Assembly (NCBI GenBank): GCA_024399655.1
Contig: JAKSNP010000001.1
Location: 170,247 to 234,246, forward strand
DNA: 64,000 nucleotides
Source: Paludibacteraceae bacterium
GTDB taxonomy: Bacteria > Bacteroidota > Bacteroidia > Bacteroidales > Paludibacteraceae
Direction of reading: 5' to 3'
The notes beneath the pieces are model-generated. The model searched no databases and was not told the origin of the DNA. It saw nothing but the letters and a program-made list of their open reading frames with translations. Of this stretch, positions 3,271-64,000 are shown piece after piece. Both the position numbers and the translations under genes were made by a program. Position 1 is the first letter of the stretch. Every line of letters begins with the position of its first letter.

Positions 3271-3274
3271 AATT

Positions 3275-3607: not shown

Positions 3608-3622
3608 TTGTCCATTCAACTA

Positions 3623-47876: not shown

Positions 47877-47951
47877 GGGCGTTTAGCTCAGCTGGTTTAG
47901 AGCATCTGCCCTACAAGCAGAGGGTCGGCGGTTCGAATCCGTCAACGCCCA
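47877..47951 (+). tRNA. tRNA-Val (anticodon UAC)
   Basis: 75 nt. The acceptor GGGCGTT pairs with AACGCCC, the anticodon stem TCTGC/GCAGA encloses CCTACAA (anticodon TAC), and the T-arm is GGCGG-TTCGAAT-CCGTC. CCA is not encoded. The integrase gene follows directly, so this tRNA is the likely insertion site of the downstream element. Confidence 0.95.
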
Positions 47952-47952
47952 C

Positions 47953-47990
47953 AAAGACTGATAATCAACAAGTTATCAGTCTTTCCTTTT
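47953..47990 (+). terminator. Terminator after tRNA-Val
   Basis: AAAGACTGATAA pairs perfectly with TTATCAGTCTTT (12 bp), followed by CCTTTT. Confidence 0.9.
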
Positions 47991-47999
47991 ATAAAACAC

Positions 48000-48042
48000 A
48001 AAATTGTGTCAAAATTGTGTCAAATGTTGGTTCGATGCCAAC
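48000..48042 (+). repeat. Tandem 11-mer and T-arm-like hairpin upstream of the integrase
   Basis: AAAATTGTGTC occurs twice in tandem (48000-48010, 48011-48021), a possible integrase arm-binding repeat. Next GTTGG-TTCGATG-CCAAC (48026-48042) has the exact geometry of a tRNA T-arm, perhaps a relic of an earlier insertion. Confidence 0.45.
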
Positions 48043-48098
48043 GGCACAAATGGTTAGCTTTACTTCTGTTGTGTTCAGCATAACGGAAGTAAAAAAAA

Positions 48099-49433: not shown

Positions 49434-49456
49434 TCAAACTAACCTGGGGCGCTTGG

Positions 49457-51271
49457 CTAATCTTGCAATTTCCAAAAAGTCCCTTTCAATAGGCGGGACA
49501 TACCTTTATTGGTAAATGTGGCAGTGATTTTCTCACAGAGGTATTTCTTACCATGGATATAGAATACCGAGCGCACATTTGGTATGTCGTCAGCCAAGAA
49601 TTTGAAAGTATATTTCTGCGTGGGGTCAATAGTGCCCGGAGTGATATACTGATTAAAGGTGTCCGAATTAAGAGCCAACGACCATCCAAGGTAATTCGGC
49701 CACCAAGAATTATTGAAATCTACGATGTCAATATAAGGATGTACATAAGTATCAAACAACCCTCCACCGGGGTAAAAAGCCACATAGATTTTATCCAAAT
49801 ACTCCTCATCCTCCTTTATGTAATCCTCTTGCAATTCCTTGATAAAATAATCGGGTTCGGGCGCAATATGAGCCATCGCCTCGTCCCAGTTGTCAAAGCC
49901 ATTATGAGGGCCCGCACCTTTGGCATTCTCATAGTCGGGCAACTGCAAGAAAATACATTGCCCTTTTTCCACGGTGGTATCGTCTATCCAAGCAGGAACT
50001 ATTTTAAGTTCCTTTGTCTCGGCTTCCGGATTAACAATGCGTGGAGCAAAAGTATTGACAAACTGCCCTATGGTATAATAATACCCATAAGGACAAGCTT
50101 CCCCATTTATTTGACTGGTGCCGAGTTTCTCAAATTGTATGGCACGGACGATTAAGTACCTATTTTCTTCCCTACAATAGAACAGCCGACTAATCGCACC
50201 CGTAACAGGATTTCCTATGCACCCCCAACCATTACTCCGTGCCAATTCAGCCACAACCTCCACATTATCGACTTCCCGATACAAAGTGCCATGATTCAAA
50301 TACTTATCCAACCAAAAGGCGATAAAGGTGGGGTTTACATAGTATTTCCACATACGATGGTCGCAGTCGGCGTATTTGAGATTACAAGCACCTCGATACT
50401 TACAATCTCCCACATCGACTTTCTCCATTTGGTAGTCGTCCAAGACCTCCTTTAATTCTACATCTTCGCAACTCTCCACAAGTGTACGCGTGAAACTCAT
50501 ACGCAGGTGTTTAGTGGTATGGTCTATTTCAAATTCACAATTCATCAGATACTCCAACTGCTCCAGCAGTTCCGTAATCGTCCAATGCGGCAATGCCTTG
50601 GCAAAATTATGGATTTCCCAAGCAGCAGGTAATGCGTTGCAAATAAGCAGATATTTGTAGTTGCTGCCCTCCCAAGCGGAAAAGTCATAGGAGTACCCTA
50701 ATTGGGTGCATATCTGCTTTACGATATACAGCATATACGGCTGAAAGGACAAAGTGGTGGCTTTCCAAGTAGCCCCTGAAATTGAGAGGTTCATATCATT
50801 TTGAACATTGCCGGTATTGTTATTCACCCAAGGCAAAGCCACATAGTTTGTACCATAATTATCCACCCAGTTGTTCCTTGCCATAGGGAAAGACGATGCA
50901 GCCGTATCAGGATAGCCCAAGTCAAGCTCGTTGATATAGACATCATCAAAAGTATTGACATAGTTATTGACAGAACGCCCCTCTAAAAATTGCGTCTTAA
51001 CCTCAATATCGTTTATCTCAACAATAGTGATACTCCCCTTTTTGTAAAACTTGCCGTCCCTTATCTCACAAGGTAGCAGAAGCTGCGACTTCTCTACATC
51101 CTTACGGCGTATATGCCCAAAGATAGCCGTATTTTGCGCGCAATCTTTCAAAGGGAAAGTGATGGCTAATGTATAACTATCTGCGCCCGAAAAATACCTA
51201 TTTTCGGACACAAATTCAAAATTGCTGCCCTGTTTGAGTATGGCAGGTTTGTTGTCAATAGTGATGGTCAT
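49457..51271 (-). CDS. Phage tail-associated protein, function unknown
   Basis: A 604-residue soluble protein lying directly after the tape-measure gene (TAATG overlap). It starts MTITIDNKPAILKQGSNFEF with SFEITFP-like wording (SYTLAITFPLKDCAQN), and carries aromatic-rich middle regions (WTITELLEQLEYLMNCEFEID; MWKYYVNPTFIAFWLDKYL). Its position suggests a distal tail or hub component. A protein of this size in this position is usual in Bacteroides-type siphoprophages, but no family name can be given. It is the last gene of the minus-strand tail unit and meets the integrase gene head-on. Confidence 0.6.
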   Translation of the reverse strand: MTITIDNKPAILKQGSNFEFVSENRYFSGADSYTLAITFPLKDCAQNTAIFGHIRRKDVEKSQLLLPCEIRDGKFYKKGSITIVEINDIEVKTQFLEGRSVNNYVNTFDDVYINELDLGYPDTAASSFPMARNNWVDNYGTNYVALPWVNNNTGNVQNDMNLSISGATWKATTLSFQPYMLYIVKQICTQLGYSYDFSAWEGSNYKYLLICNALPAAWEIHNFAKALPHWTITELLEQLEYLMNCEFEIDHTTKHLRMSFTRTLVESCEDVELKEVLDDYQMEKVDVGDCKYRGACNLKYADCDHRMWKYYVNPTFIAFWLDKYLNHGTLYREVDNVEVVAELARSNGWGCIGNPVTGAISRLFYCREENRYLIVRAIQFEKLGTSQINGEACPYGYYYTIGQFVNTFAPRIVNPEAETKELKIVPAWIDDTTVEKGQCIFLQLPDYENAKGAGPHNGFDNWDEAMAHIAPEPDYFIKELQEDYIKEDEEYLDKIYVAFYPGGGLFDTYVHPYIDIVDFNNSWWPNYLGWSLALNSDTFNQYITPGTIDPTQKYTFKFLADDIPNVRSVFYIHGKKYLCEKITATFTNKGMSRLLKGTFWKLQD

Positions 51272-54200
51272 TATCTACGAGATTTAGGGGTTTTGTTCTT
51301 AATGAGTTGGTTGTATTCGTCTTGGGCTTTCTTGATACCATTATCACCCTCTATGGTGTTCACGGTTACAAAAGGTTCGTGCAGGCGGTCGGTTAAACTG
51401 CGCATAGTCCGGGAATAATCGGCAAGGGTGGCAGCAGTAGCTGTCAGAACCTTATCTAAATGCCCATCGGCGGCAGACTGTGAAAGCACCTGCGGAGCAG
51501 TCAGGGAGTGCGAAACATCTGACGCTTTAAGGTTGCCTATCGTGTTAGTGCGTTGGGCATAATCAAGGGTATTTATCATAGCCCTTGCCGTTGGGTTTGC
51601 AAGCAGTTCCTGTGAGGCAACCCATTCCCCAGCGTGAACGACACCGACTTCCTTATACTTATCCCCAGCAGGCGTAAAACCACCCCCGGCATAGCCCTGT
51701 GATTCGGACGCTTGTTGCTGTTTTTTGATGGACGCAATTTGTAGGGCACCAGCAGCAATAGCCATAGCAGCAGCAATAGGTGCCATAACAAACCCGACAA
51801 CAGGAATAGCGGCAGCCGAGGAGTAAGCGGAAATGGCAGACATAGCCGTCTGTGCGACTGCTTGGATAACCTGCATCGCAAACATCTTCTTGTTTGCTTC
51901 AGACTTTGCCTTGGCAATCTCTTTCTGCTTTTGGTTTTCAAGTTGGACTTCTTTATACTTGTTACCTTCAGCAGCCGATATTTGCGCGTCATACGAGGTG
52001 GTAATCTTGGCGGTCTCAATATCCAACTCCGCTTGGATCATATCACTAATGCCGGAGAAAATCTCGGACATGCCACTCAACACGGTCTGCAAGGTACCAG
52101 TGAGGGCTTCTCCACCATCAGAACCGAGCCAGTCGGCGATATCATCCACAGCAGAACGATAGGACTTTTTCAGTTCCTTGGCGTTCTTGATGTTGTATTT
52201 ACGCCCTAATTGGTACTTTGCTTCTTGGAAAGCGCGTTCAATTTTGAGTTTGTCCTTGCTGTTGTCGCCGCACGCTTTGAGCATTTGGGTATGGACCAAC
52301 TCAAGATTTTTGAGGTCGCGGGAGTAACTTTCATTGTCGGGGGTCTGATATGCTTTGGTGAAATACTCCTGACGGAATTTCTCCTGCATCCTCTTGCTCT
52401 CCTCAAGGTGCTTTTGCTGATGCTTTAAGGAAGTGCTATGGTACTTCTCCTCTGCCTTAATTCTCTCCCTGCTGCCCTCCTCGTAGAGGTTGGCAACCTT
52501 GCGTAGGTGTTCCAATTCTGCCAACTCGATGGCACTTTGGTACTGACGCGCGGACATCTCCCCATCCATATAGCGTTGCTGGAGGACGGCCAATATATCT
52601 TTATATGCCTGTTCTTCCTGCTCAATGGTACCTGCCACTGCGTTGTCCTTTTGCTTTTTGAGGGCTTCATAATACGCGGCTTGGATGGTCACTTCCTCAT
52701 TACCCTCCAAATCGGTGTGGTCTAACTTTTTCTTGTTATAATCCACCTGTATTTGCAGCATACGCTGGGTGTATGCTTCATAGTCCTTTTCGCCACGAGC
52801 ATATGCAATACGATTGAGGGCTTCCTCTCTCTGCTTCCAATCATCTTCAAATTGGAATTTATTTTTAGACGGCTTGGAATCGTCTGTAGGTGCCGGTGTT
52901 GGCGTTGGTTCGTCCGTGGTAGGAGTGACGACAGTTCCACCCGAATTGGCAGCCACCCCATCTATGACTGCTTGCAGTTCCTGCCATTGCCTTTTGAGCG
53001 ATTTAATGTGTTGGTTATTGCGTGCGATATTTGCGACAATGGCGTGAACATTCTCATTTAACCTGTCTCTCTCTGCCCCCTGCGCTGCGTCCTTGGCACG
53101 AATAGCATCCTGCTTGACTTGCTCAAAAGCAGCATTCTCCTTTTCAAGCCGTTTCAGTTCGTCCTCAATGGGTATCTGCTGGGTAACGGTTTCCTCTATC
53201 TTCTCTTGGTTCATTCGTGCGCGGATGGACGATTTCAAAGATTCAAGGTACTGGTCGAGGGCTTCCTTATTGTTGTTTATGAGTGTGCCCTCCTTGGTTA
53301 GGTCTGCGTGGTAGTCAGGAACTATCTCCTTTAGGCGTTTCAAAGCTGCCTCACGCTGCTTTAAGGAAAGCGCGTTGTTCTCCACAACGCGAGATAGTTT
53401 GACCACCTCTGCGGCTTGCTTGGCATACTCATCTTCCGTGCGCTTGTTTACATCGGCGATGGCTTCCCTGACTTTCAACTCACGCTGTTCCGCTTCGGTA
53501 AGGCGTTTTTCACTGGCGGCTGCGTCCTTTTGGTGTTTGATGAAAAGAGCCAAAGCAGTACCAGCAGCAACGAGAGCAGCAGCAAGTAAGCCCCAAGGGT
53601 TGGCTGCCATGGTAGCATTTAGCATCTTCATAGCTGCGTTTGCGCGTACCGTGTTGCCTGTAAGTTTGGCATAAGCGGCTGAAGCAAGCAGGACTGCGAC
53701 TTTATGCACATGCAATAAAGCAGTCTTGGTTGCGATAAGTACATTATGCAGGGATTCCTTGATGACCGCCCAATTAACGGCAACCGAATAAGCCACAATA
53801 CCTGCCGTCAGCGACAGGATGGCTGTTTTATGCTCTTTAACAAACTGGATTGTTTTGAGCATAACGCGCATAGTGGCTGATGTACTGCTTATAATATGTT
53901 TGAGTGCCGGCTGTAGTTCCTTGCCAAGGGTAATAGCCATTTCCTTAAAGCCCTTTTTGGCTTTCTCCAGTCCTGCCTGAACCGTAGTGTTTTGCACATT
54001 ATACTCGGTAGTGACGGAAGTTGCCTGCTCAAATGCCGTCTGTGCTTCGCCCAATTCCCAACGGAGCATATCGGTATTGTTGGCAAGGGTGGAAAGGACT
54101 TGCGACAAACGGACGCTATCCATTCCAAGATCCTTGAACAGAGGAGCCAACTTCAGCAGCCCCTCATCACTACCCATTGCGTGGATATGGTCAAGGAACA

Positions 54201-55326
54201 TCAGCACCCCCTCATTGGTGGAGCGTTTGAGTGCAGCCGTGAACTTATCTACATCCATACCCACTTGTGCGGCTATCTTTCCGGGGTCTTTATAGAGCAT
54301 CATAATGAGTTTGCCGAGGTTGCTTGCCGACATCTCGCACGCCTGACCGTTTGCGTCTAAAACGGCGGCAAACGACATAATTTGAGGGATAGACATTTCG
54401 GCAGTATTGGCTACACCGGCAATGCGTTGGGCAAAGTTTGCAAGGTAAGGAGCAGAAGCCGTGCAGTTCTGCGATAACTCGTTTATCACAGATCCGACCG
54501 CAAGCAGGGATTTTTCCGTGCCAAGTCGCTCCTCATCGCCAAAGATGGAAGTCAGCTTTGAAAGTGTCAAAGTTGCCCCATCGCCCAAGTCGTCCAAGGC
54601 GACATTTATTTGGTTGGCAGCGCGAACGAAGCCCAACACATCTTCTTCAGATGACTTGCCCAAGCGTCCTGCCTCCTGTGCTAACTTATTCAAATCCTCA
54701 CGAGAAGTCCGGGTGTCTAATTTCTTAAACGCCTCATTCATATGCTCGACTTCTTCAGCAGTCATTCCTGTATATTTCCGGACAGAAGCCATCTCTTGGT
54801 CCATCTCGGCATAAGTCTGAACAGCAGCCTTGCCTGCCATCACTATACCTGTGGCAGCACCAACGGCACCAACGGCGACGGTCTGCCACTCTTGCCACTT
54901 ATTATTTACCCTTTCCAAAAAGGTTTGAGACTTGGCGAGTTCCTTATTTACCTTGTCGATTTCGTCCTTAACGGCTTTAATCTTCCTAACCTGTGCGTCC
55001 CAAGCACTTGAACCGCGCTCCATATTCTCTAACTGCTTATTGAGGGTACGGAGCGTTTTCTGTAACTCGGTCGGGGTGGCTTTATCAAGTCTGCGGAGGA
55101 CATTATCCACCTGCATAGCAGAGGATTCTATTTGCTTTATGTGCTTGGTCGTCTCTTTCAATTCCCTTTGTAGCTTTTTAAGCGTCACCTTGTCGCCTGC
55201 GGCAGCCGCTTTCGCTATCTGCTCCGTAAGGTCAAGAGCGTGCTTTTTAAGATTAACAAGCGTCTCCTCTGCCTGTCTTCCGTTCACTTGTAGCGTAACG
55301 GTCGCGTTGGTATTACTGTCTGACAT
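51271..55326 (-). CDS. Phage tail tape measure protein
   Basis: 1351 residues. Coiled-coil at 25-130 (KKLQRELKETTKHIKQIE), then the TP901-type tape-measure core (YAEMDQEMASVRKYTGM ... AQEAGRLGKSSEEDVLGFV ... LSKLTSIFG, ~165-430). Hydrophobic segments lie near 500-610 (LTAGIVAYSVAVNWAVI, WGLLAAALVAAGTALALFI). Long charged coils follow (~615-1130) with a Thr/Pro spacer (TPTTDEPTPTPAPTDDS), then another hydrophobic block (PVVGFVMAPIAAAMAIAAG) near 1210. The length sets a siphovirus-like tail of roughly 200 nm if the usual ~1.5 angstrom per residue holds. A weak promoter-like pair (TTACTTTG at 55344-55351, partner TTTG at 55370-55373) precedes it. Confidence 0.88.
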   Translation of the reverse strand: MSDSNTNATVTLQVNGRQAEETLVNLKKHALDLTEQIAKAAAAGDKVTLKKLQRELKETTKHIKQIESSAMQVDNVLRRLDKATPTELQKTLRTLNKQLENMERGSSAWDAQVRKIKAVKDEIDKVNKELAKSQTFLERVNNKWQEWQTVAVGAVGAATGIVMAGKAAVQTYAEMDQEMASVRKYTGMTAEEVEHMNEAFKKLDTRTSREDLNKLAQEAGRLGKSSEEDVLGFVRAANQINVALDDLGDGATLTLSKLTSIFGDEERLGTEKSLLAVGSVINELSQNCTASAPYLANFAQRIAGVANTAEMSIPQIMSFAAVLDANGQACEMSASNLGKLIMMLYKDPGKIAAQVGMDVDKFTAALKRSTNEGVLMFLDHIHAMGSDEGLLKLAPLFKDLGMDSVRLSQVLSTLANNTDMLRWELGEAQTAFEQATSVTTEYNVQNTTVQAGLEKAKKGFKEMAITLGKELQPALKHIISSTSATMRVMLKTIQFVKEHKTAILSLTAGIVAYSVAVNWAVIKESLHNVLIATKTALLHVHKVAVLLASAAYAKLTGNTVRANAAMKMLNATMAANPWGLLAAALVAAGTALALFIKHQKDAAASEKRLTEAEQRELKVREAIADVNKRTEDEYAKQAAEVVKLSRVVENNALSLKQREAALKRLKEIVPDYHADLTKEGTLINNNKEALDQYLESLKSSIRARMNQEKIEETVTQQIPIEDELKRLEKENAAFEQVKQDAIRAKDAAQGAERDRLNENVHAIVANIARNNQHIKSLKRQWQELQAVIDGVAANSGGTVVTPTTDEPTPTPAPTDDSKPSKNKFQFEDDWKQREEALNRIAYARGEKDYEAYTQRMLQIQVDYNKKKLDHTDLEGNEEVTIQAAYYEALKKQKDNAVAGTIEQEEQAYKDILAVLQQRYMDGEMSARQYQSAIELAELEHLRKVANLYEEGSRERIKAEEKYHSTSLKHQQKHLEESKRMQEKFRQEYFTKAYQTPDNESYSRDLKNLELVHTQMLKACGDNSKDKLKIERAFQEAKYQLGRKYNIKNAKELKKSYRSAVDDIADWLGSDGGEALTGTLQTVLSGMSEIFSGISDMIQAELDIETAKITTSYDAQISAAEGNKYKEVQLENQKQKEIAKAKSEANKKMFAMQVIQAVAQTAMSAISAYSSAAAIPVVGFVMAPIAAAMAIAAGALQIASIKKQQQASESQGYAGGGFTPAGDKYKEVGVVHAGEWVASQELLANPTARAMINTLDYAQRTNTIGNLKASDVSHSLTAPQVLSQSAADGHLDKVLTATAATLADYSRTMRSLTDRLHEPFVTVNTIEGDNGIKKAQDEYNQLIKNKTPKSRR

Positions 55327-55498
55327 ATGCTAAAATTTTTGCGCAAAGTAACGAAAAAAAATCTGCTCCCAAAAAGACAGCCCAAATGCTCGTAAATTCC
55401 CGAACTGGGGGCAAATTTTACCCTCTAAAAATTTGAAATGCCTTGCATTTGTCCACAGATAAATAAAAAATAGTGGTGTAAATCAATGAGTTAGGTTT

Positions 55499-55522
55499 CC
55501 AAAGGGCAAAAAAGCCCTTTGG
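55499..55522. other. Perfect inverted repeat upstream of the tape-measure gene
   Basis: CCAAAGGGC, six A, GCCCTTTGG. A 9-bp hairpin with an A6 loop (T6 on the minus strand). It lacks a T-tract after the stem, so it may be a regulatory rather than terminating structure. Confidence 0.6.
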
Positions 55523-55659
55523 TCTCTGCGAAGTCAGCCCCCCACCGCCCTGCCGTTCCCGATTTCAAAAAATCGGAGGTCTTTTAGCGGAATATGCGTC
55601 TAACTGCTTGATAATGCCGAAAGTTACGAAAAACAAAGGTCACCCCACGACACACGCGC

Positions 55660-56275
55660 CCCAAGTCTGCCCCTATAAGGTCGCGCCTTTGATAGTCTGC
55701 CTATACGCACACCCCCGAAAGTCTCTGCCCCGATAGTCTATGCCGTTGCAGTCTCGCCATACCGACACGCGCCCCGATGGTCTCACTATGAGCAAAGGGG
55801 GCAAAAGTCAAGACGCGATAGTCTATGCCCTTGCAGTCAAGACAATGCCCATACGCGCCCAAAGTCTCACCCCGATAGTCTATGCCGTTGCAGTCAGCCA
55901 CTACCCACACGCGTCCAAAGTCATACCCCAATAGTCAGCGCGTTGATGGTCTCACTATGAGCAGAGGGGAGAAAGTCAAGGCGCGATAGTCTATGCCTTG
56001 CGGTCAAGACAATGCCCATACCCCCGAAAGTCTCGCCCCGATAGTCAATGCCTTGTAGTCAGCCACTACCGACACGCGCCCCGATGGTCTCACTATGAGC
56101 AGAGGGGAAAAGTCAAGGCGCGATAGTCTATGCCTTGCGGTCAAGACAATGCCCATACCCCCGAAAGTCTCGCCCCGATAGTCAATGCCTTGTAGTCAGC
56201 CACTACCGACACGCGCCAAAGGTCTCGCCCCGATAGTCAGCGCGCTGATGGTCTCGCCCCTATACGATGACCGCC
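55660..56275. repeat. Irregular tandem-repeat field in non-coding prophage DNA
   Basis: About 600 bp composed of variants of three words: CGATAGTC(T/A)ATGCC with TTGC(A/G)GTC, AAAGTCTCGCCCCGATAGTC and GATGGTCTCACTATGAGCA. The last word starts at 55776, 55945 and 56083, with a shortened form at 56247, giving periods of 169, 138 and 164 bp. GTC recurs every ~15-25 bp. Units vary in length and order; no unit is exact enough for a CRISPR array and no long open frame is conserved. It lies between the lysis cassette and the tape-measure gene. Confidence 0.8.
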
Positions 56276-56537
56276 CCACCGCGCCAAAAGGGAAAAGGTC
56301 AAGAGGTTGCAAGGTCTCGCCCTTGCGCCTACGGCTCACACCTTGCGGCAGCGCGGTATCGGGCTTTGCGTGCGCGCGTAGCGTGTATAAATAAGGAGCA
56401 AATGGGCGGTAGCGCAGGTTGCTCCCGATTAGCAAATGGGCGTTAGCGCAGTTGCCATTTACAATTATTATTCGCAAAATGGGCGTTAGCGCAGGTTTGC
56501 ACAAAAAGAACGAACCGAAGTCTTGCGAGGTTCGCAT
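56276..56537. other. Non-coding GC-rich stretch with a triple AAATGGGCG(T/G)TAGCGCAG repeat
   Basis: The word AAATGGGCG(G/T)TAGCGCAG occurs three times, at about 56400, 56434 and 56477. The preceding ~120 bp are rich in GCGC and CTTGCG words, with no gene. It could be the 3' part of an RNA or a continuation of the repeat field. Confidence 0.5.
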
Positions 56538-56569
56538 AAAAAAGGGGAACAAGTCTTGCGCCGTTCCCC
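56538..56569 (-). terminator. Terminator at the end of the lysis operon
   Basis: On the minus strand GGGGAAC and GTTCCCC form a 7-bp stem with a 12-base loop, followed by TTTTTT. It lies 12 bp after the last lysis gene. Confidence 0.8.
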
Positions 56570-56580
56570 ATCTTTGAGCA

Positions 56581-57054
56581 TTAGATTATATGTTTCTTGT
56601 GCAGCCACAAGAGCAGCACCACGGCGGCAATAAGCAAGACCGCCAACACAATGAACAGCCAAGTTAGGTTTGGAGGTTCAGCAATAGCAACGACCTCATT
56701 TGTGTCATTGATATTTGTGTTCGTGCTGGTATGGCTTGCTGCCGTGTCAGAGCGTTGAACGGAGCAATCCACAGCCGATGTCTGACGCGCTTCCGAATTA
56801 ACGCGGGGATTATGCGCGGTAATTCGTATTGTGGGCGTTACTGTATCGCCGTCTTGCGGTGATACACAGACGACCACACTATCCGCCGTAAAAGATAGTT
56901 TGGAAAGCAAGCTATCTACCGAAACTGCGTGCAGTTCCGTGTTCGAGCGTTCGACCACATCGGCTTTGGTGTCAGAGGTCTGCACCAAATGCCGATTGGT
57001 ATGGCACGAGGTCAGACCGAGTGCCAACACGAGAAAGGCGATTAGTTTTTTCAT
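56581..57054 (-). CDS. Spanin-like lipoprotein with C-terminal membrane helix
   Basis: 157 residues. Start at ATG 57054, overlapping the amidase stop (ATGA) and opening a lipoprotein signal (KKLIAFLVLALGLTSC, Cys at 16). The central part is Ser/Thr/Asn-rich (HTNRHLVQTSDTKADV, TNTNINDTNEVV), and a C-terminal helix (LTWLFIVLAVLLIAAVVLLLWL) ends KKHII. A lipoprotein with a second membrane anchor in a lysis cassette suggests a unimolecular spanin-type role linking the two membranes; inference from position and topology. Confidence 0.6.
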   Translation of the reverse strand: MKKLIAFLVLALGLTSCHTNRHLVQTSDTKADVVERSNTELHAVSVDSLLSKLSFTADSVVVCVSPQDGDTVTPTIRITAHNPRVNSEARQTSAVDCSVQRSDTAASHTSTNTNINDTNEVVAIAEPPNLTWLFIVLAVLLIAAVVLLLWLHKKHII

Positions 57055-57464
57055 AGCCCCACCTCCTGCAACCATTGTTGCACATTAAAACAAGGGCACG
57101 CTTTGGCGGCAAATTCATTATGCCCGTGGATAGTGGCTTGGGGGTACTGCTGCAGAAGTTGTTTCAGCAGCTGCACCATCGAGGCACGCTGTTCATTGTT
57201 CCGGGTGTCGGCAGGTTTGCCGTCAGCGGCAAGCCCCCCGACATAGCACACACCAATGGAATTGGTGTTGTGTCCCTTGCAATGGGCACCCACCTCCTCT
57301 ATGGGGCGACCGTTTTGGATCGTACCATCGAGGCAAATTACATAATGATAGCCACAAGTTGCCCAACCTTTTTCACGATGCCAGCGCGTGATATCAGCAA
57401 CAGTCACCTGTTGTTCGGGGAAAGTAGCCGTGCAATGCACGATAATTTCATTGATTTTTCGCAT
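57051..57464 (-). CDS. N-acetylmuramoyl-L-alanine amidase (phage endolysin)
   Basis: A 137-residue Amidase_2 domain, no signal peptide. The zinc-binding first His is in IIVHCTATF (residue ~10), YHYVICLDGTIQNGRP marks the core, and the second zinc region is ATIHGHNEFAAKACPCFN, with the third ligand Cys/Asp in ACPCF. AHCKGHNTNSIGVCYVGG completes the family pattern. It cuts the amide between N-acetylmuramic acid and L-alanine at host lysis. It is flanked by a holin-like and a spanin-like gene. Confidence 0.92.
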   Translation of the reverse strand: MRKINEIIVHCTATFPEQQVTVADITRWHREKGWATCGYHYVICLDGTIQNGRPIEEVGAHCKGHNTNSIGVCYVGGLAADGKPADTRNNEQRASMVQLLKQLLQQYPQATIHGHNEFAAKACPCFNVQQWLQEVGL

Positions 57465-57485
57465 AACTCAAAAAGTTTACAGGTT

Positions 57486-57707
57486 CTACATTCGTTTTTC
57501 ACAGTCCGTGCGAAAACAGACTTGTTTCTCCAATTTGGTAATTCGCTCATCAAGGAAATTTATCCGATTGATGAGAACTTTGTCCATCTCTGCCGTTGCA
57601 TCGGCTTGGGCTTTTTTCTTCAGCGAACGAACGGTAATGAGTTGGATGATGTTGGCACTGCCTAAAACAGTGCTTAAAAAAGTGAGGATAATTTCAAGTG
57701 TACTCAT
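57486..57707 (-). CDS. Small holin-like membrane protein
   Basis: 73 residues: one N-terminal membrane segment (TLEIILTFLSTVLGSANIIQLI) and a charged coiled-coil (MDKVLINRINFLDERITKLEKQ). It precedes the amidase by 21 bp in the transcript, where holins usually lie. The single-helix design fits small holins or antiholins; assigned by position and topology only. Confidence 0.55.
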   Translation of the reverse strand: MSTLEIILTFLSTVLGSANIIQLITVRSLKKKAQADATAEMDKVLINRINFLDERITKLEKQVCFRTDCEKRM

Positions 57708-57711
57708 ATCT

Positions 57712-58299
57712 TTAATAATTTAGGGGGTAAACATGGATATTGATGTGCGAATTAGCAGAAATTCTCGTGCCATGGTTTGAGGAGCAATACGAAATTAGGT
57801 GGATTGTTTGGTCGGGCGACAAAATGGTTGAGTAATTGATGGGGACATTGAAGATTTGCGTTGCGCCTGTAAAGTGGGTGGTCATGATACAATCGGCATA
57901 GCGTTCTCCCTCATCATCCAATTTGAAAAATCGGATTACGCGGTCAGCCGCGTAACTGTCTATGGGCTGTAGCGTGATGTGCCCGGTAATTTGTACCAAA
58001 CAATCACGCTTGGCAGTAAGCAATGGCGATTGTGCATTTGCTCCCAGCGTGGCATATTCCAAAAGAGAGTTCACAGCAATGGAATCTTGATCGACAGGGA
58101 TTTCCGTTTCTACTGCTCCTTCGGCTGTCATACCTGTAAGGTTGGCAAATACAAATTCTCCCTCCAGCGTGGAGGTGGCGGCTTGCCGTATCTCTGCCAT
58201 CATTTGGGAAAGAACATCAGCAAGAGAAGCAGGGGTAATAGACCCTACTTCGGATTGTGCGCGTAAGTTAGCGATTAGTGATTGGGCTGTTTGAGACAT
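57712..58299 (-). CDS. Phage structural-type protein, unknown
   Basis: 195 residues. The N-terminal helical part (AQSLIANLRAQSEVGSITPASLADVLSQMM) resembles the trimerising or attachment segment of Bacteroidales prophage fibre-type proteins. The remainder is beta-rich (GEFVFANLTGMTAEG; VQITGHITLQPIDSY; FNVPINYSTILSPDQ). No catalytic motif. It lies in the operon between a morphogenesis-type gene and the holin-like gene; a tail-fibre or head-decoration role is possible but not shown. Confidence 0.5.
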   Translation of the reverse strand: MSQTAQSLIANLRAQSEVGSITPASLADVLSQMMAEIRQAATSTLEGEFVFANLTGMTAEGAVETEIPVDQDSIAVNSLLEYATLGANAQSPLLTAKRDCLVQITGHITLQPIDSYAADRVIRFFKLDDEGERYADCIMTTHFTGATQIFNVPINYSTILSPDQTIHLISYCSSNHGTRISANSHINIHVYPLNY

Positions 58300-58319
58300 A
58301 ATATAACGATTTTATGGGT

Positions 58320-58766
58320 TTAGCGATAGCGTTGTTGTATGGTATCGGCAAGGACACCTTGGAATTGACGGCCAAGATTGTCTGCAAAGAAATCTTTGAT
58401 GTTCATTACCGAAGCGTAATACTTTACGCTGAACCAACGGCGTTTTTGGCGGACTTTAGTCCGTCCAAGATCGCCCGAATTACCTCGTGGCGTTTCACGC
58501 CCTGTTCCATAGTCTTGCCAAATACCATACTCCAAGAATTGTTGGGAGAGCGACACCTCAAAAAATCGTCCGTCAGCGCGGACGGGCAGCGATACAAGTG
58601 TATCAAGCAAATGCGGTTGCCCCTCCCTGCTTTTACGGCGTGGCTGCTCAATAACATCCAGTAGCGTGATTTTCTCGCGCCATATATTGAGCATAGTTTG
58701 GTTGAAAGCGAGGACATATTTCTCGCGTTCCTCGATGGCTTGGCTTTCTGTAAGTTGTTGGGTCAT
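58320..58766 (-). CDS. Phage morphogenesis-type protein, unknown
   Basis: 148 residues, basic. It contains FLEYGIWQDYGTGRETPRG and KRRWFSVKYYASVMNIKDFF, a Tyr/Gly/Arg-rich pattern shared by small head-tail connector-like proteins of Bacteroidota prophages (the D-Y-G-T-G block resembles HK97 gp10-type proteins). It overlaps the upstream gene by 4 bp (ATGA). Assigned from wording and context only. Confidence 0.5.
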   Translation of the reverse strand: MTQQLTESQAIEEREKYVLAFNQTMLNIWREKITLLDVIEQPRRKSREGQPHLLDTLVSLPVRADGRFFEVSLSQQFLEYGIWQDYGTGRETPRGNSGDLGRTKVRQKRRWFSVKYYASVMNIKDFFADNLGRQFQGVLADTIQQRYR

Positions 58767-59875
58767 GCGAATTGTGAGCTAAATTGTTCAGAGAATATGC
58801 CGTTTGAACCTGACTGGATAGCGCGGAGTGTGTCGCGGCAGTTGGCAAATTGCCATTCAAATTTGACGGCATTAACAGTACCAGGTTCATCCGAAATTTC
58901 GTAATCATAATCCGTGATTAGGATTTGAGGCATTTGCTCCACATCGGAAGAAAGCCCATCCCAATAGCGGATGTCGCGTGAGGTAAGGAATTGCGTAAGC
59001 CAGTCGGCTTGCGTAAGGAGTAACGCGGAGGTTTCCATTTCATAGCTGCGCGTGTGTTCTATATCGTACTGGGTGGAAACATCGCCACAAACTGCCGAGG
59101 ACGATTTTGTTTCCAATTTATTGGCTGTCGATACAGGCAAAATCGCTAACTCAAGGGCATTAAAGCAGTTTCGGAAATAGAACATACGCTGCGTTTCGCG
59201 TTGGGTAAGGTAAAAGGTGCAGGACCGATTTACAAAAGTGACGGTGTAGGAAAGTATCTTGTCGTCAGCCGACAAGACAGAGGAAAATTGATTCTTTATG
59301 AATTGATAAGTAACCTCTAACTTTCCTACGCCATGCACGCCTTGCATTAACAATGTTTTTTGTTCCGTCACAAGCGTTCCATTGCGCAAGAACACAATGC
59401 GATAGTTTATAGGCAAAACAGGATAAGCAGGGGCTGATGGAGTGGGACAAAAATAGGGTAAGTATTCGCGTGCGGACTTTGTTGTCACGCGAGATTGTGC
59501 GGTGGTAAGGAAATGCGACTGTAGAAAATCGGCTGCGCTATCGGTACGATTGCTGTGGCAATGAAGAACGGTCATATCTTGGGTTAGTTCTTCAGCATTG
59601 GAAACGAGCTTCAGCCGTAAGTCAATGACTGCCCAGCCGTTTTTCACAAGTTCTTCCTCTATTATCTCGCGCAGGTCATAAACTGTCGCCCTATTATTGA
59701 TGGGGTAATAAGTGGAGGAAAAGAAAGCAGTTCCTGAAGCGTAATTTGAGCCGGTACCAGCTTTGCCATAGAGAGTAAGGGCAAGCGGTGCGCCATTGGT
59801 AACGGACACAACGAGGTCGGGGACTTGCGAAGAGAAATAATAATCTTCTAAACTATTAACAATAGAAAGAGCCAT
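58763..59875 (-). CDS. Phage-associated protein of unknown function
   Basis: 370 residues, no signal peptide or membrane helix. Beta-rich, with LVVSVTNGAPLALTLYGKAG, VYDLREIIEEELVKNG, YPVLPINYRIVFLRNG and YFRNCFNALELAIL. It is first in the operon behind its own promoter, followed by the morphogenesis-type gene with a 4-bp overlap. I recognise no family; the position suggests a virion component. Confidence 0.5.
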   Translation of the reverse strand: MALSIVNSLEDYYFSSQVPDLVVSVTNGAPLALTLYGKAGTGSNYASGTAFFSSTYYPINNRATVYDLREIIEEELVKNGWAVIDLRLKLVSNAEELTQDMTVLHCHSNRTDSAADFLQSHFLTTAQSRVTTKSAREYLPYFCPTPSAPAYPVLPINYRIVFLRNGTLVTEQKTLLMQGVHGVGKLEVTYQFIKNQFSSVLSADDKILSYTVTFVNRSCTFYLTQRETQRMFYFRNCFNALELAILPVSTANKLETKSSSAVCGDVSTQYDIEHTRSYEMETSALLLTQADWLTQFLTSRDIRYWDGLSSDVEQMPQILITDYDYEISDEPGTVNAVKFEWQFANCRDTLRAIQSGSNGIFSEQFSSQFA

Positions 59876-59894
59876 ACCTTTGCATTATTTTCTG

Positions 59895-59926
59895 CAAAGA
59901 TACGGCTAAAAGTGCGGTGGCGAAAA
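59895..59926 (-). promoter_or_regulatory. Promoter of the prophage lysis/structural operon
   Basis: On the minus strand TATCTTTG (59895-59902) lies 20 bp before the 370-residue gene. The expected partner ~20 bases upstream is TTTC (near 59922-59926), a weaker match. Confidence 0.65.
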
Positions 59927-59966
59927 GACACAAAAAAAAGAGGGCAGAGAAAATATATCTATCTGT

Positions 59967-61562
59967 CTAACATTTGGCTGACAGGTACTGCGCAATTTGT
60001 ATGGATTCAAGATTACGCATGTAAGATTCCATAAATTGCCAATCGGGATCGCCTTCTTGAGTGGCTGGGAGAAGTAGCGTCTGACGCTTCATGCGTTGTG
60101 CGTTAAACTTATAGCCATACGCATATTTAGATTTCTGTTGTAATAGCGTCTGTTTGAGGAAAAGATAGATATATTTCCCGGAGTTATTAGATGTATTGAT
60201 TTGTTTACAATGTAGTCGTTTGACATCATCCGAAAAAATGCACTCGTATGGATGGTAAAACGCTTCGCCGACACTACCGTTATAATTGACACCCAAAACA
60301 TCCTGGTCTAAACTTGCATTGGTATTGCTGACCCATGCGGTAATACCATTATTACTATCAGAAGCACCAATAAACGGCATATCACCTGCAAACATATCTG
60401 CTACCGTAAGGCGTACCCCTGAAGATATAGTAAAGACATCATCAAGAGCATACTCTTTCCATTGTAACTCATTGATTTTCACCCCCCCCATAGATTTTGC
60501 AGTGTCTAATCTACGCTGCAAAATAGGCATGGTAGTACGCAATATATCCTGCTCTACTTGGTGCATGAAAGAGGACATAAAAGCGAAGTCGGGTTGTCCG
60601 TCTTTCGTGGCAGGGAGAATTAACTTCTCACGCTTAATGCGTTCATCATTTATTTCACGATTGAAACCATATTTTTCTGATAATCTACTGATGAGTGGTG
60701 TCATAAAGAGATAGGCATAACGATCAAGTCCATCTCTTTTCAGTTGTGTAACATGGTCGCTTGCTACAAATCTATAGCAATGAAAAAAAGTACTACCTAC
60801 ACTTCCACTATTAGCGATTGTTAGGCAATCGTCAAATACCCTTATGCCGCTTTCGTTACCAATAAATCCATCCACACCATTTCCCTGTGCAGTCGAGGAG
60901 ATGTAGGGCATTTTGCCATCTTCATGGTCTGCCTTTTTAAGGCGTTTACCGCGTTGAACTTCGGTAAACACATCCGTAAAGTAAAATTCTTTCCAATAAA
61001 GATTAGAGAGGCACGAATTACCCCCCCCCATTATCTCGTTGATAATCAGCCGTTTGCATAATTTATCTAATGTTGGTTTCAGTATTTGTTGTTCGGTTTG
61101 TCGCATATAATCTTCCATAAACTGCCAGTCGGGAGTGCCGTCGGCAGTGGCAGGGAGAAGAATTTTTTGGCGTTTAATTCGCTGTTGAGCAAATTTATAT
61201 CCATATCCATATTTATTGTCTATGGCTTTTTCGATTGCCTTTTTAACAAAAAGCCCTGCCCAATATGAAAGTTTAGATCCATCTTTGAGCACAAGTTTTT
61301 CCACATGGTCGGTTGCTATAAAATCGTATGGATGGAATGCCACGAAACCAATAGTGGCACTATCAATGGTAATAACACCACCATCCTCTGTAGGTTCATT
61401 TTTGTAAAAATCATCCAAAGCATTATTGGTTGCAGCACATGTAACCCGTGGTGTTTTACCATCTCCGATAAGGTCTGACGGTTTAGTGGTGATTGTTCCT
61501 TTCACATCAAACCATTTGTTAATCGGAAACTCTTTCCAATCTCTATCGCTCAACTCTATCAT
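59967..61562 (-). CDS. Specificity subunit of a BcgI-like restriction-modification system, three recognition units
   Basis: 531 residues built of three homologous target-recognition units at ~1-180, ~188-360 and ~368-531. Each starts with a WKE(F/Y) block and ends with R(I/M)KR..(I/L)LLPAT..G.PD(W/F).FM..(Y/F)M, the helical spacer that binds the methylase subunit. Ordinary S subunits have two units; the BcgI B subunit is ~340 residues. At the unit 1/2 junction the codons IMGGGN contain nine G in a row (61021-61029), and at 2/3 SMGGV contains eight (60482-60489). Adding one G at the first tract places TAA directly after MGGG; losing one at the second places TGA after MGG. Slippage would thus cut the protein cleanly at unit borders. 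The start overlaps the methylase stop. Confidence 0.88.
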   Translation of the reverse strand: MIELSDRDWKEFPINKWFDVKGTITTKPSDLIGDGKTPRVTCAATNNALDDFYKNEPTEDGGVITIDSATIGFVAFHPYDFIATDHVEKLVLKDGSKLSYWAGLFVKKAIEKAIDNKYGYGYKFAQQRIKRQKILLPATADGTPDWQFMEDYMRQTEQQILKPTLDKLCKRLIINEIMGGGNSCLSNLYWKEFYFTDVFTEVQRGKRLKKADHEDGKMPYISSTAQGNGVDGFIGNESGIRVFDDCLTIANSGSVGSTFFHCYRFVASDHVTQLKRDGLDRYAYLFMTPLISRLSEKYGFNREINDERIKREKLILPATKDGQPDFAFMSSFMHQVEQDILRTTMPILQRRLDTAKSMGGVKINELQWKEYALDDVFTISSGVRLTVADMFAGDMPFIGASDSNNGITAWVSNTNASLDQDVLGVNYNGSVGEAFYHPYECIFSDDVKRLHCKQINTSNNSGKYIYLFLKQTLLQQKSKYAYGYKFNAQRMKRQTLLLPATQEGDPDWQFMESYMRNLESIQIAQYLSAKC

Positions 61563-63466
61563 TTGTCGTCTCCTTTCTCAAATAGGTATCCTCTGCCGTG
61601 TGTAATCATATTAAACTCAAAAGTGAGGTAGTCAGCCATAGTTTTTTGGAAGTCGGCTTCAGATGGTATTTCATCGTTGAAATAATAGAACGAGTGTAAC
61701 CATTCGTCTTCGGGTTCGATGGTAGTTTCAACGCAAAACTTTGTATCGGTAGTGGTGCGCCCAAACCAAACATCAAGCAAATGTTGTCGCTTGTCTTTAG
61801 CGGTGGGGGTTTCAACTAAACCGATATGTTTCTGCACCTCAAATCCGTCATTTTGGAAATTGATAAACTTGCACTTGTGGTTTTTGGGGTGAGGAATACC
61901 GGCAGTAAAGACGGCAATACAAGGATTGGTGCCCACCCCATAGAAAGTGTCCTTATTAAGAGTGATAACACCCTCCAAAGTATGGTGTTTGAGTATGTTG
62001 TCTTTAATGGTCTGTTCCTCTTTGCTCTTGCCTGTAACGGAAGACTGCGGAACGATGACGACACATTTAGAATCGGGAGTAAGAGAATCTAGCAGATGCT
62101 CGGTAAAACTGATTTCGTACTGCGAGGGGTCTTGCTTGCTACCTTGCGAGTATGGTGGATTCATCATACCGACATTGCAGCCCCATTGCTGTAATTCAGC
62201 AGGATTGGTGGCAAGAAAATCCTTGTTGTGCAAATTGCTTTTTCCATCGCCCCGCAAAATCATATTCGTGGTGGCAATGGTAAACATGTAGGGTTGCAGT
62301 TCCAAGCCAAAGAGTTGGTCGCGGCGGATATGTCTCTGTTTCTCCTCGTCGGGCTCTTGCAAAAGCATTTTGTGCATAGCAGCAATGAGGAAGCCAGCCG
62401 TTCCACAGCAAGGGTCAAGAACTTTGTCTGTTGGTTTGAGTTCGGCAAGTTCGCAGAAAAGGTCTGTAATATGCTTGGGTGTCAGCACGATGCCAAGCGT
62501 TTGTCCGTCACCACCCGAATAGGACATAAATTCACCATAAAACCGTCCGATATAGTCCTCTGATGAAGAATGACGGAACGAACGAAAGATGGAGTTATAA
62601 AGAAACTCGGTATAGTGACGCAAAGGTGTTTTGCCCAATTTGGGTTCAATAAGATTGATTTTTGCGGTGTCTTTGATAACGGCAAACTGACTGAGCAATT
62701 TATCACGCTTGGTTTCGGGTGTTACATTGGCGCGGTTAAGATTTGCTTGTATGGCATCGTAAATCTTCTGACCGTCTGTGTGGACTTCATCACCAACAAG
62801 GGAATCAATGGAGAATGTTTTGTGTTCAATCTCCCTTAAAGCAAGCATAATACCCGAAACGAGCAAGGGCTTGTCGGTATCTTTGATAGCACCATAAGTA
62901 CGCAGTGCCTCGTGCAATTCGGCTGCCTGTTTGAGAATTTCGGAGGTCTCTTTCTCTACATCGGTATTCTCTTTCAGTATTTCATGCAAATAGAAGTCGT
63001 GGATATTGTCGGCATTGAAAGAGATAAAAGTTTCGACATCATCAAGGACTTCGTAATCGCCACGCTCATTTACGAAAATAGGCGTGATGCGGTGGTGCTT
63101 TGGGTCGCCCGAAACACCAAAAGCAAAAATCTTGTGAAAATTAGTGTGCGTGGCAATATGTTTGGCGTAAAAGAGCGCACCATTAACTGCATAATCCCTG
63201 ACGGGCTTTATCTCCTGCGAAATGAGTTGGTTTGTGTCAAGGAAGATATGCTTGTCAAGTGCTGCTTTATCCTCAATAACAAGCAGAAACTCTCCTACTG
63301 CGCCACAATATTCGGGATAGCCGCTATTGCCTGTCTGCGATTTAGAAGCAGTGGAGAGTGCTTGGTTTACTTCGAGAATATCGGAACCCTGTGCGGTAAG
63401 TTGGATATTTGCATCTTTGAGCAAGTCATATACCCAAAGATCGGTCTTTACTTCTTTCTTTGCCAT
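61559..63466 (-). CDS. BcgI-like fused nuclease-methyltransferase subunit
   Basis: 635 residues, close to the BcgI A subunit length. The N-terminal region carries a PD-(D/E)XK-type endonuclease signature: Pro51-Glu52, twelve residues, then Glu65-Asp-Lys67 (LLVIEDKA). A helical type I-like linker follows (~150-300). The N6-adenine methylase domain has motif I DPCCGTAGF at ~351-359 and the catalytic NPPY at ~436-439. Such proteins modify and cut with a separate specificity subunit, here the next gene (ATGA overlap), so no HsdR is needed. A plain type I HsdM is the alternative reading. The start lies 15 bp after tRNA-Ala. Confidence 0.85.
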   Translation of the reverse strand: MAKKEVKTDLWVYDLLKDANIQLTAQGSDILEVNQALSTASKSQTGNSGYPEYCGAVGEFLLVIEDKAALDKHIFLDTNQLISQEIKPVRDYAVNGALFYAKHIATHTNFHKIFAFGVSGDPKHHRITPIFVNERGDYEVLDDVETFISFNADNIHDFYLHEILKENTDVEKETSEILKQAAELHEALRTYGAIKDTDKPLLVSGIMLALREIEHKTFSIDSLVGDEVHTDGQKIYDAIQANLNRANVTPETKRDKLLSQFAVIKDTAKINLIEPKLGKTPLRHYTEFLYNSIFRSFRHSSSEDYIGRFYGEFMSYSGGDGQTLGIVLTPKHITDLFCELAELKPTDKVLDPCCGTAGFLIAAMHKMLLQEPDEEKQRHIRRDQLFGLELQPYMFTIATTNMILRGDGKSNLHNKDFLATNPAELQQWGCNVGMMNPPYSQGSKQDPSQYEISFTEHLLDSLTPDSKCVVIVPQSSVTGKSKEEQTIKDNILKHHTLEGVITLNKDTFYGVGTNPCIAVFTAGIPHPKNHKCKFINFQNDGFEVQKHIGLVETPTAKDKRQHLLDVWFGRTTTDTKFCVETTIEPEDEWLHSFYYFNDEIPSEADFQKTMADYLTFEFNMITHGRGYLFEKGDDK

Positions 63467-63481
63467 AGTAATGTCTTTTTG

Positions 63482-63555
63482 TGGAGTATAGCGGACTCGA
63501 ACCGCTCACCTCGACACTGCCAGTGTCGCGCTCTAGCCAGATGAGCTAATACCCC
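63482..63555 (-). tRNA. tRNA-Ala (anticodon GGC)
   Basis: 74 nt on the minus strand. The acceptor GGGGTAT pairs with ATACTCC and contains G3-U70, the alanine identity pair. The anticodon loop CTGGCAG gives GGC, the T-arm is AGCGG-TTCGAGT-CCGCT, and the discriminator is A. CCA is not encoded. It lies immediately upstream of the restriction-modification pair and may be transcribed with it. Confidence 0.93.
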
Positions 63556-63568
63556 TCCATTTTATTCT

Positions 63569-63784
63569 TTATCCACAACTTCCCAATGCCCACCTTTCGT
63601 TTATGGTGACTTCTTGGGACATTTCTTGGGACATTTCTTGGGCAATCTTTTGGGAAGTTATGGTGAAATCTGCTTGTATCATTTTTAATATAACTTTCTG
63701 CCTTTCAGTCAGGTGTATACCGTAATTATTACCGCATCCACTCCCGCAATTTCTGTCTTCTGCGGACGGCATTGGGAAAACCAA
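63569..63784 (-). pseudogene. Short winged-helix-type fragment
   Basis: A 71-codon open frame. HLTERQKVILKMIQADFTIT followed by SQKIAQEMSQEMSQEV resembles the C-terminal winged-helix end of AlbA_2/AAA_4-type ATP-binding regulators, with a 12-bp repeat encoding SQEM. The usual N-terminal ATP-binding domain is missing and no good start context is seen, so it is probably a remnant. Confidence 0.4.
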
Positions 63785-63800
63785 AACAATCGTTCCATGT

Positions 63801-64000
63801 TCATTTTTTAACTACATAAGTACGATTTTTATTCCCTCCTTCAGCGACAAGTAGGTCTATTTCAACAAGGGCTTGCACATAGTTTTTAGTTCTTGAGGCA
63901 CTTTGTTGTGTTATTTCCATTAACATTCCCGTCGTAGAATGAGGGTGCTCCTCTAAAAATAACATAATCGCCACCATCTTGTCTATTGCTCCGCTACTTA
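63801..64000 (-). CDS. Winged-helix-type protein, C-terminal part only
   Basis: The minus-strand frame is open from the window edge to TGA at 63801. Its ~65 residues include KMVAIMLFLEEHPHSTTGM, QQSASRTKNYVQALVEIDLL and EGGNKNRTYVVKK, which fits a MarR-like winged helix with its basic wing. It ends 16 bp before the neighbouring fragment. The N-terminal part lies outside the window; it could be a regulator of the element or the end of an ATP-binding protein. Confidence 0.5.
   Translation of the reverse strand, partial: SSGAIDKMVAIMLFLEEHPHSTTGMLMEITQQSASRTKNYVQALVEIDLLVAEGGNKNRTYVVKK

What the first reader, a model, noticed from the sequence alone, without database searches (positions are those of the whole stretch)
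60482..61029. Three-unit specificity subunit with G-tracts at both unit junctions: a likely phase-variable switch
Seen: three homologous recognition units in one S subunit, with runs of 9 G (61021-61029) and 8 G (60482-60489), counted on the coding strand, exactly between units 1/2 and 2/3. Worked out by hand: 10 G at the first tract gives ATG GGG GGG GGG TAA; 7 G at the second gives ATG GGG GGG TGA, and 9 G gives a stop four codons further on. So one-base slippage yields a one-unit, two-unit or three-unit subunit. The two-unit form (~359 residues) is close to the BcgI B subunit size. Known: homopolymer slippage switches R-M specificity genes in other bacteria. New here: a third unit plus tracts placed so that every slip ends at a unit border.
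Basis: partly seen in the sequence, partly recalled or inferred. Interest (0 to 1): 0.88.

Follow-up and report, generated by a model that had tools for sequence, protein, structure and literature searches.

The report
Serial frameshift switch in restriction enzyme
A gut bacterium's DNA-cutting and DNA-marking enzyme carries three target-reading modules joined by two slippery runs of G, so one-letter copying errors can add or drop modules and probably change which DNA the enzyme recognises; related bacteria use the same layout with other repeats.

Summary
Gene 61562-59967 (-) encodes a 531-residue specificity (S) subunit with three Methylase_S units; G9 (61021-61029) and G8 (60482-60489) lie at the two unit borders, and are two of only four G/C runs of 8 or more in the held genome. 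Its partner (63466-61559, -) is a BcgI-like nuclease-methylase.

Relatives support a slippage switch. In the best 80 of 277, 56 repeats lie at unit borders and 3 in unit bodies. All 31 three-unit S genes have a border-2 repeat: poly-G, poly-C, (TA)n or a pentamer. Repeat borders are in frame in 18 of 56, repeat-free borders in 46 of 47. In one near-identical pair the only indel in 8,290 bp is one G in a border tract.

A one-to-two-unit G-tract switch is already proven in a BcgI-like system (HpyUM032XIII) and in NgoAV. Not found in print: two such switches in series in a three-unit gene. The three-unit rule has no held-out test; specificity change is inferred. New variant of a known kind.

The parts
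61559..63466 (-). RM (A) subunit, 635 aa: N-terminal nuclease region (my reading) plus N6-adenine methyltransferase; its stop overlaps the S start (ATGA)
   Evidence: Pfam N6_Mtase 2e-32; PADLOC REase_MTase_IIG PDLC03602, residues 2-631 on profile positions 2-632 of 637, 5.5e-175
59967..61562 (-). S subunit gene, 531 aa as sequenced, three TRD units
   Evidence: Pfam Methylase_S, 3 stretches, 3.7e-54; PADLOC Specificity_II PDLC03591 (341 positions), 3 stretches, 1.5e-110
61086..61547 (-). TRD unit 1 (profile match)
   Evidence: unit profile match 2454-2915 in the reverse complement of window 56001-64000, converted
61021..61029 (-). G9 tract at border 1/2; followed directly by TAA, out of frame as sequenced
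60546..61004 (-). TRD unit 2 (profile match); its type recurs in relatives
   Evidence: 2997-3455, converted
60482..60489 (-). G8 tract at border 2/3; followed directly by TGA, out of frame as sequenced
60000..60470 (-). TRD unit 3 (profile match); its frame has a GTG codon at the end of the tract
   Evidence: 3531-4001, converted

Best explanation
[quoted passage not shown] Each unit is one target recognition domain plus its helix. The first tract decides whether unit 2 is joined to unit 1, the second whether unit 3 is added. Replication slippage of one G gives one-unit (181 aa, or 239 aa with a foreign tail), two-unit (360/364 aa) or three-unit (531 aa) subunits. By the HpyUM032XIII and BsaXI precedents the one-unit form would pair with itself and give a symmetric site, and the two-unit form a mixed 1+2 site; the three-unit form could add 1+3 or 2+3 pairings, as the three-domain JHP1422 does. 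Shown here: anatomy, frames, concentration of repeats at the borders, length differences between near-identical copies of relatives, purifying selection on units that are out of frame. Inferred: slippage as the cause, activity of each form, the change of specificity, benefit to the cell (varied defence or methylation among sister cells).
For: (1) Two of the held genome's four G/C runs of 8 or more lie at the two borders. (2) Of the best 80 of 277 relatives of A, 78 have S units; 56 repeats lie in borders, 3 in unit bodies (all A9/T9), 1 in the 1,900 nt upstream. (3) 31 of 31 three-unit loci have a border-2 repeat; 14 of 31 also have a border-1 G tract, and these 14 have titles naming Bacteroidales or groups within it. 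(4) Repeat chemistry differs (G, C, TA, AGCCG) while position is kept. (5) Repeat borders open in 18 of 56, repeat-free in 46 of 47 (p 2.8e-13). (6) Near-identical copies: L027/L028 8,290 bp, 2 mismatches, sole indel one G at border 2; L027/L026 3,168 bp, 1 mismatch, sole indel one G at border 1; L110/L121, sole gap in a 4,630-bp block with 23 mismatches is 8 nt, matching 16 against 12 TA copies. (7) A stop triplet directly follows 28 of 37 border G tracts (0 of 7 C tracts) versus 44 of 602 G3-5 runs in bodies. (8) dN/dS below 0.1 in most close pairs shown, also for units out of frame in both rows: unit 2 L047/L050 0.022, unit 3 L043/L047 0.071. (9) Tested by others: HpyUM032XIII (PMC4450513), NgoAV (PMC9577141), BsaXI TRD1-CR1 (PMC9159934), JHP1422 (PMC3936762); passages read.
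Against: No reads, so no tract variation shown within a population or in the window's own species. The window's own tracts are in frame and could be fixed. The single-G differences between L026, L027 and L028 could be sequencing errors (the TA and pentamer differences hardly). Loci are related, so p-values are inflated. One slip phase adds 59 foreign residues. 30 of 41 two-unit loci have no border repeat by my definition, so the switch is not universal; L041 has an interrupted G6 tract and L071 is out of frame without a repeat. In ten further two-unit loci, repeat borders were open in 3 of 4 and repeat-free borders in 5 of 6 (L148 out), a weaker contrast. Some close pairs have higher dN/dS (unit 3: L029/L031 0.22, L059/L068 0.24 on two changes, L066/L073 0.14). 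Selection on an out-of-frame unit would also be seen if it were translated on its own. No activity of any form was tested; TRD1 of JHP1422 alone did not methylate its expected site.
Confidence: 0.8

Rival explanations
1. Slippage happens in transcription or translation rather than in DNA: RNA polymerase or ribosomes slip on the G run, so every cell makes a mixture of one-, two- and three-unit subunits from one allele.
For: G8-G9 runs can be slippery for polymerase or ribosome (recalled; a review, PMC5009743, was only seen in the listing). Stop triplets next to tracts suit either.
Against: DNA lengths differ between near-identical copies and 38 of 56 repeat borders are out of frame. (TA)n and a pentamer at the same border suit DNA slippage better.
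Confidence: 0.1
2. The tracts are only flexible linkers (poly-Gly) between units with no switching role.
For: In the sequenced frame they encode MGGG and MGG between units.
Against: 38 of 56 repeat borders are out of frame and 47 borders have no repeat, many of them of similar length; C tracts encode proline in one frame; a linker needs no homopolymer at DNA level.
Confidence: 0.03
3. On/off rather than retargeting: only one form (for example two-unit) is active and the other forms are inactive states.
For: TRD1 alone of JHP1422 did not methylate (PMC3936762); H. pylori HP1471/HP1472 gave no activity after frame correction.
Against: One-unit S of HpyUM032XIII is active with a palindromic site; fixed one-unit S genes exist in this family (L040, L130); two tracts in series would be redundant for plain on/off.
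Confidence: 0.25
4. Unit gain and loss mostly comes from recombination between the homologous units, and tracts are by-products of the joins.
For: Domain movement between S units is documented in H. pylori (PMC3077401); plasmid loci L129 and L130 differ by one unit.
Against: Tracts keep the same place in many lineages and vary alone in near-identical copies.
Confidence: 0.05

Closest known systems
HpyUM032XIII (H. pylori UM032, BcgI-like; PMC4450513)
   Same: BcgI-like RM plus S split by a border G tract (G12); S1 alone gives CYAN7TRG, fused S1-S2 gives CYAN7TTC (passages read)
   Different: Two units and one tract; here three units and two tracts in series
NgoAV (N. gonorrhoeae Type I; PMC9577141, PMC6789123)
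   Same: Poly-G in the S gene; one G less fuses two half genes and changes specificity (passages read)
   Different: Type I with HsdR; two half genes, one tract
JHP1422 (H. pylori J99 Type I; PMC3936762)
   Same: S subunit with three recognition domains; its system methylates two different sites (passages read)
   Different: No border repeats described in the passages seen; domains 2 and 3 identical
Hpy99XIV / JHP1272 (Type IIG; PMC3936762)
   Same: Two homopolymer switches in one gene, one on/off, one specificity (passages read)
   Different: Single-chain enzyme; the second tract adds a small extra domain, not a full unit
BcgI and BsaXI (Type IIB; PMC9159934, PMC11997821)
   Same: RM + S architecture; truncated BsaXI S (TRD1-CR1) gives a new symmetric site (passages read)
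   Different: Two-unit S; no switch described in the passages seen

Membership tests
BcgI-like Type IIB/IIG R-M (RM + S) | Fused nuclease-methyltransferase of about 637 aa | tested here: met
   PADLOC PDLC03602, profile positions 2-632 of 637, 5.5e-175; 45.1% identity over 96% to the Staphylococcus phage protein annotated bcgIA. Nuclease activity not tested.
BcgI-like Type IIB/IIG R-M (RM + S) | Separate adjacent S gene built of TRD units | tested here: met
   PDLC03591, three stretches; the genes overlap by 4 nt
BcgI-like Type IIB/IIG R-M (RM + S) | Exactly two TRDs in S (as in BcgI itself) | tested here: not met
   Three units; but 31 of 78 relatives also have three, so I do not treat this as defining the wider group
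BcgI-like Type IIB/IIG R-M (RM + S) | Cuts on both sides of a bipartite site | not testable with these tools
   Needs an enzyme assay
Type I R-M (NgoAV kind) | Separate HsdR translocase | tested here: inconclusive
   None among the neighbouring ORFs inspected; no dedicated HsdR search was made; the contig ends 534 nt upstream of A
SSR phase-variable gene | Repeat whose length sets the frame | tested here: met
SSR phase-variable gene | Repeat length varies among close copies | tested here: met
   In relatives, not in the window's own species:
SSR phase-variable gene | Variation within one population changes phenotype | not testable with these tools
   No reads or assays

The most novel reading that the evidence does not exclude
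A general serial domain-number switch: across several phyla, BcgI-like S genes carry a third recognition domain only through a hypermutable repeat, and in Bacteroidales both borders are switchable, so one gene yields three or more DNA specificities by independent one-base steps; the three-domain form itself works as an enzyme with more than one site.
Probability: 0.45. Interest if true: 0.72.

Novelty: new variant of a known kind. Interest (0 to 1): 0.55.

Why it matters
If true, one locus without any recombinase can generate a small repertoire of restriction and methylation specificities among sister cells, in gut Bacteroidales, where I know phase variation chiefly from DNA inversion (recalled). 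It also offers a natural series to settle what a three-domain S subunit recognises, and a rule (third domain only via a slippery repeat) that can be checked in any genome collection. Annotation may split such genes into several S genes or pseudogenes; the paired bcgIB entries of H. parasuis (PMC6211672, passages) could be such a case, which I did not check.

Tried and rejected
Structure prediction of the S protein with alignment A2 was asked for 13 times and never started: the queue was full. The PDB sequence search with S gave 0 hits, with A 11 sequences, all methyltransferase subunits or site-specific methyltransferases. The viral scan with S found 2 loci at 27 and 30% identity. The plasmid search gave 6 records; 4 were inspected, 3 with two units and 1 with one. 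A held-out test of the three-unit rule failed for lack of material: further genomes gave 10 two-unit loci and no three-unit gene; 4 of these 10 have a G/C run of 6 or more at the border (3 open), 6 have none (5 open). Of the other places from those searches, L143 ran into a contig end without a unit, and G130 is split over two contigs with one unit on each (L154, L155). A search for a second copy of the tRNA-Ala 3' end in the window found only the tRNA itself. Poly-Gly linker and assembly artefact were considered and disfavoured for the reasons given. My first junction counts cut tracts that run into the next unit and so missed several border-2 G tracts; the later count extends the border by 9 nt. 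Paper searches behind the statement that the serial three-unit switch was not found in print; the Atack 2020 survey of Type I repeats is not held and REBASE was not available.

Full report
What is there. The minus-strand gene 61562-59967 encodes 531 aa and matches Methylase_S three times. The gene before it, 63466-61559, 635 aa, matches N6_Mtase and, over nearly its whole length, PADLOC's 637-position REase_MTase_IIG model; the S protein matches a 341-position Specificity_II model in three stretches. The two genes overlap by four bases (ATGA). That BcgI subunits have about these sizes is recalled; a phage hit annotated bcgIA with bcgIB beside it supports the label. The sequence shows PEYCGAVGEFLLVIEDK in the N-terminus, which fits a PD-(D/E)xK nuclease (my reading), and DPCCGTAGFL and NPPY, methylase motifs (recalled).

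The tracts. G9 at 61021-61029 and G8 at 60482-60489 are confirmed. The count of G7 matches in the window is not unusual (25 of 100 shuffles as high), but the whole held genome (1,408,189 bases, about 75% complete) has four runs of G/C of 8 or more, two of them here (P 7.4e-8 for two of four in the junctions by random placement).

Products. Computed: first tract 10 G gives 181 aa (unit 1); 9 G with second tract 7, 8 or 9 G gives 360, 531 or 364 aa; first tract 8 G gives 239 aa, unit 1 followed by 59 out-of-frame codons. With 7 G at the second tract the stop TGA overlaps a GTG in unit 3's frame, so separate translation of unit 3 is conceivable (inference).

Relatives. The A alignment A1 (4 rows) found 277 relatives in GTDB species genomes; the best 80 were kept. 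A unit profile built from 12 hand-cut units and then with 178 more matches found units in 78 of 80: 31 with three, 41 with two, 6 with one. The two without run into contig ends (L042, L058). Of the six one-unit loci, three are cut by contig ends (L036, L055, L063); at least three two-unit loci are cut as well (L026, L030, L085). Two units that were split inside were merged before counting (L086, frame change inside unit 1; L097, break inside unit 2). Some loci come from one assembly (L043 and L050; L055 and L067).

Repeats. G/C of 7 or more, A/T of 9 or more, dinucleotides of 6 or more copies, trinucleotides of 5, longer units of 4 were counted in borders (domain end to 9 nt into the next domain), bodies and the 1,900 nt upstream of S. 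In the 80 loci: 56 in borders, 3 in bodies (A9 or T9), 1 upstream (G10 in L086). With 16 further rows (12 viral contigs, 2 phage records, the window, G092; 94 rows with units in all): 64 in 10,627 nt of border, 4 in 99,518 nt of body, 2 in 178,203 nt upstream. One of those four body hits, (AG)8 in the four-unit viral locus L114, lies 2 nt inside the end of unit 3, so practically at a border; L114's other borders have no repeat.

Rule. 31 of 31 three-unit loci carry a border-2 repeat: G (8) or C (6) in Bacteroidales, G in Avibacterium (L056), (TA)n in 14 loci of Streptococcus, other Firmicutes and an Acholeplasmataceae MAG, AGCCG in 2 Moraxella loci. The three three-unit viral loci L108, L110, L121 (TA) and the window (G) agree. 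In 14 of 31, border 1 has a G tract as well, the window's layout. Of 41 two-unit loci, 11 have a border-1 G tract; the viral two-unit locus L112 has (GA)10. The sample was chosen by closeness to the window's A, and loci are related; a held-out set of ten loci contained no three-unit gene, so the rule is untested outside the sample from which I drew it. On the A tree (82 rows, quick method; L050 dropped for a wrong start) border-1 state changes at least 8 times, border-2 state 14 times, and repeat type among three-unit loci 4 times, where 3 is the least possible with four types.

Phase. Repeat borders are open in 18 of 56 and repeat-free borders in 46 of 47; 18 of 56 is what random phase would give (p 1.0). 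In the ten held-out two-unit loci the contrast is weaker: 3 of 4 with a G/C run of 6 or more are open, 5 of 6 without. L035 (contig of the same length as, and taken to be, the same-genus locus L017/G024) has three units with G8 and C7, both out of frame; L025 (likewise L007/G140) has two units and G11 in frame; G092 (L005) has C9, out of frame.

Length change. L027 (Bacteroides mediterraneensis) and L028 (Mediterranea massiliensis) share 8,290 bp with 2 mismatches and one indel, a G in the border-2 tract; L027 and L026 share 3,168 bp with 1 mismatch and one indel, a G in the border-1 tract (gap places worked out from the alignment string). Sequencing error or a mixed sample cannot be excluded for these single bases: L027 and L028 carry adjacent strain numbers. 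L110 and L121 differ by 8 nt as the only gap in a 4,630-bp block with 23 mismatches, matching 16 against 12 TA copies; outside that block they differ more. L075 and L080 have 4 and 16 copies of AGCCG.

Design features. 28 of 37 border G tracts are followed at once by a stop triplet, against 44 of 602 short G runs in bodies; 0 of 7 C tracts are. Units mostly stay under purifying selection even where out of frame in both rows compared, with the exceptions listed under evidence against; the output was cut and dS is saturated in many pairs, so only close pairs are quoted.

Single-unit S genes exist: a free one in L040 and on a Lactiplantibacillus plasmid (L130), and units fused to A in L054 and L079. 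This supports that one unit can serve.

Literature (passages only). HpyUM032XIII shows the mechanism in a BcgI-like enzyme: S1 alone CYAN7TRG, fused S1-S2 CYAN7TTC, tract G12/G11 (PMC4450513). NgoAV shows it in Type I (PMC9577141, PMC6789123). BsaXI TRD1-CR1 alone makes AC N5 GT (PMC9159934). JHP1422 has three domains and its system two sites, and Hpy99XIV two homopolymer switches (PMC3936762). Domain movement and three-domain S genes by recombination are in PMC3077401. None of these passages describes two border repeats in series in a three-unit S gene.

Context. A phage integrase gene (48099-49433) beside tRNA-Val (47877-47952), a tape-measure gene (51271-55326) and an amidase (57051-57464) lie on the far side of S, so the R-M cassette probably sits in a prophage; the contig ends 534 nt upstream of A, so the other end is unseen. 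The system is patchy at E 1e-100: 8 of 358 genomes of the family, 4 of 393 drawn from the order, 6 of 395 drawn from the phylum, the window's own genome counted each time.

Conclusion. A phase-variable, BcgI-like S gene with two switches in series is the best reading (0.80; lowered by 0.02 on checking, because the held-out loci show a weaker frame contrast). The change of specificity is inferred from tested systems of the same kind.

Noticed in passing
window 47877-63555: Probable prophage: integrase next to tRNA-Val, tape measure, amidase, a weak Rz-like match; the R-M cassette lies at its seen end, about 15 nt after a tRNA-Ala (63481-63555).
   Followed up: partly
L105 608-615 (G000 contig C9): Another G8 run, 37 nt upstream of a 134-aa acidic ORF and near a Dam-like methylase gene (my reading of the sequence); a possible promoter-type slippage site.
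   Followed up: no
L104 about 3052-3059 (G000 contig C8): Fourth G8 run of the genome, inside a 420-aa amidohydrolase-like ORF (my reading); perhaps chance.
   Followed up: no
L068 7958-8983 and L073 5251-6276: In these two Streptococcus loci a RhuM-like gene (name recalled) sits between A and S.
   Followed up: no
L027 5568, L026 2450, L028 5568: Three genomes share a sharp left end 433 nt before A, with different DNA beyond: the cassette or its element has probably moved between genera.
   Followed up: partly
L019 2052-2059 (reverse strand): G8 at the unit border of a different M/S system in the same genus.
   Followed up: no
L114 5976-8097: Viral contig with four units after A in what look like several ORFs.
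   Followed up: no
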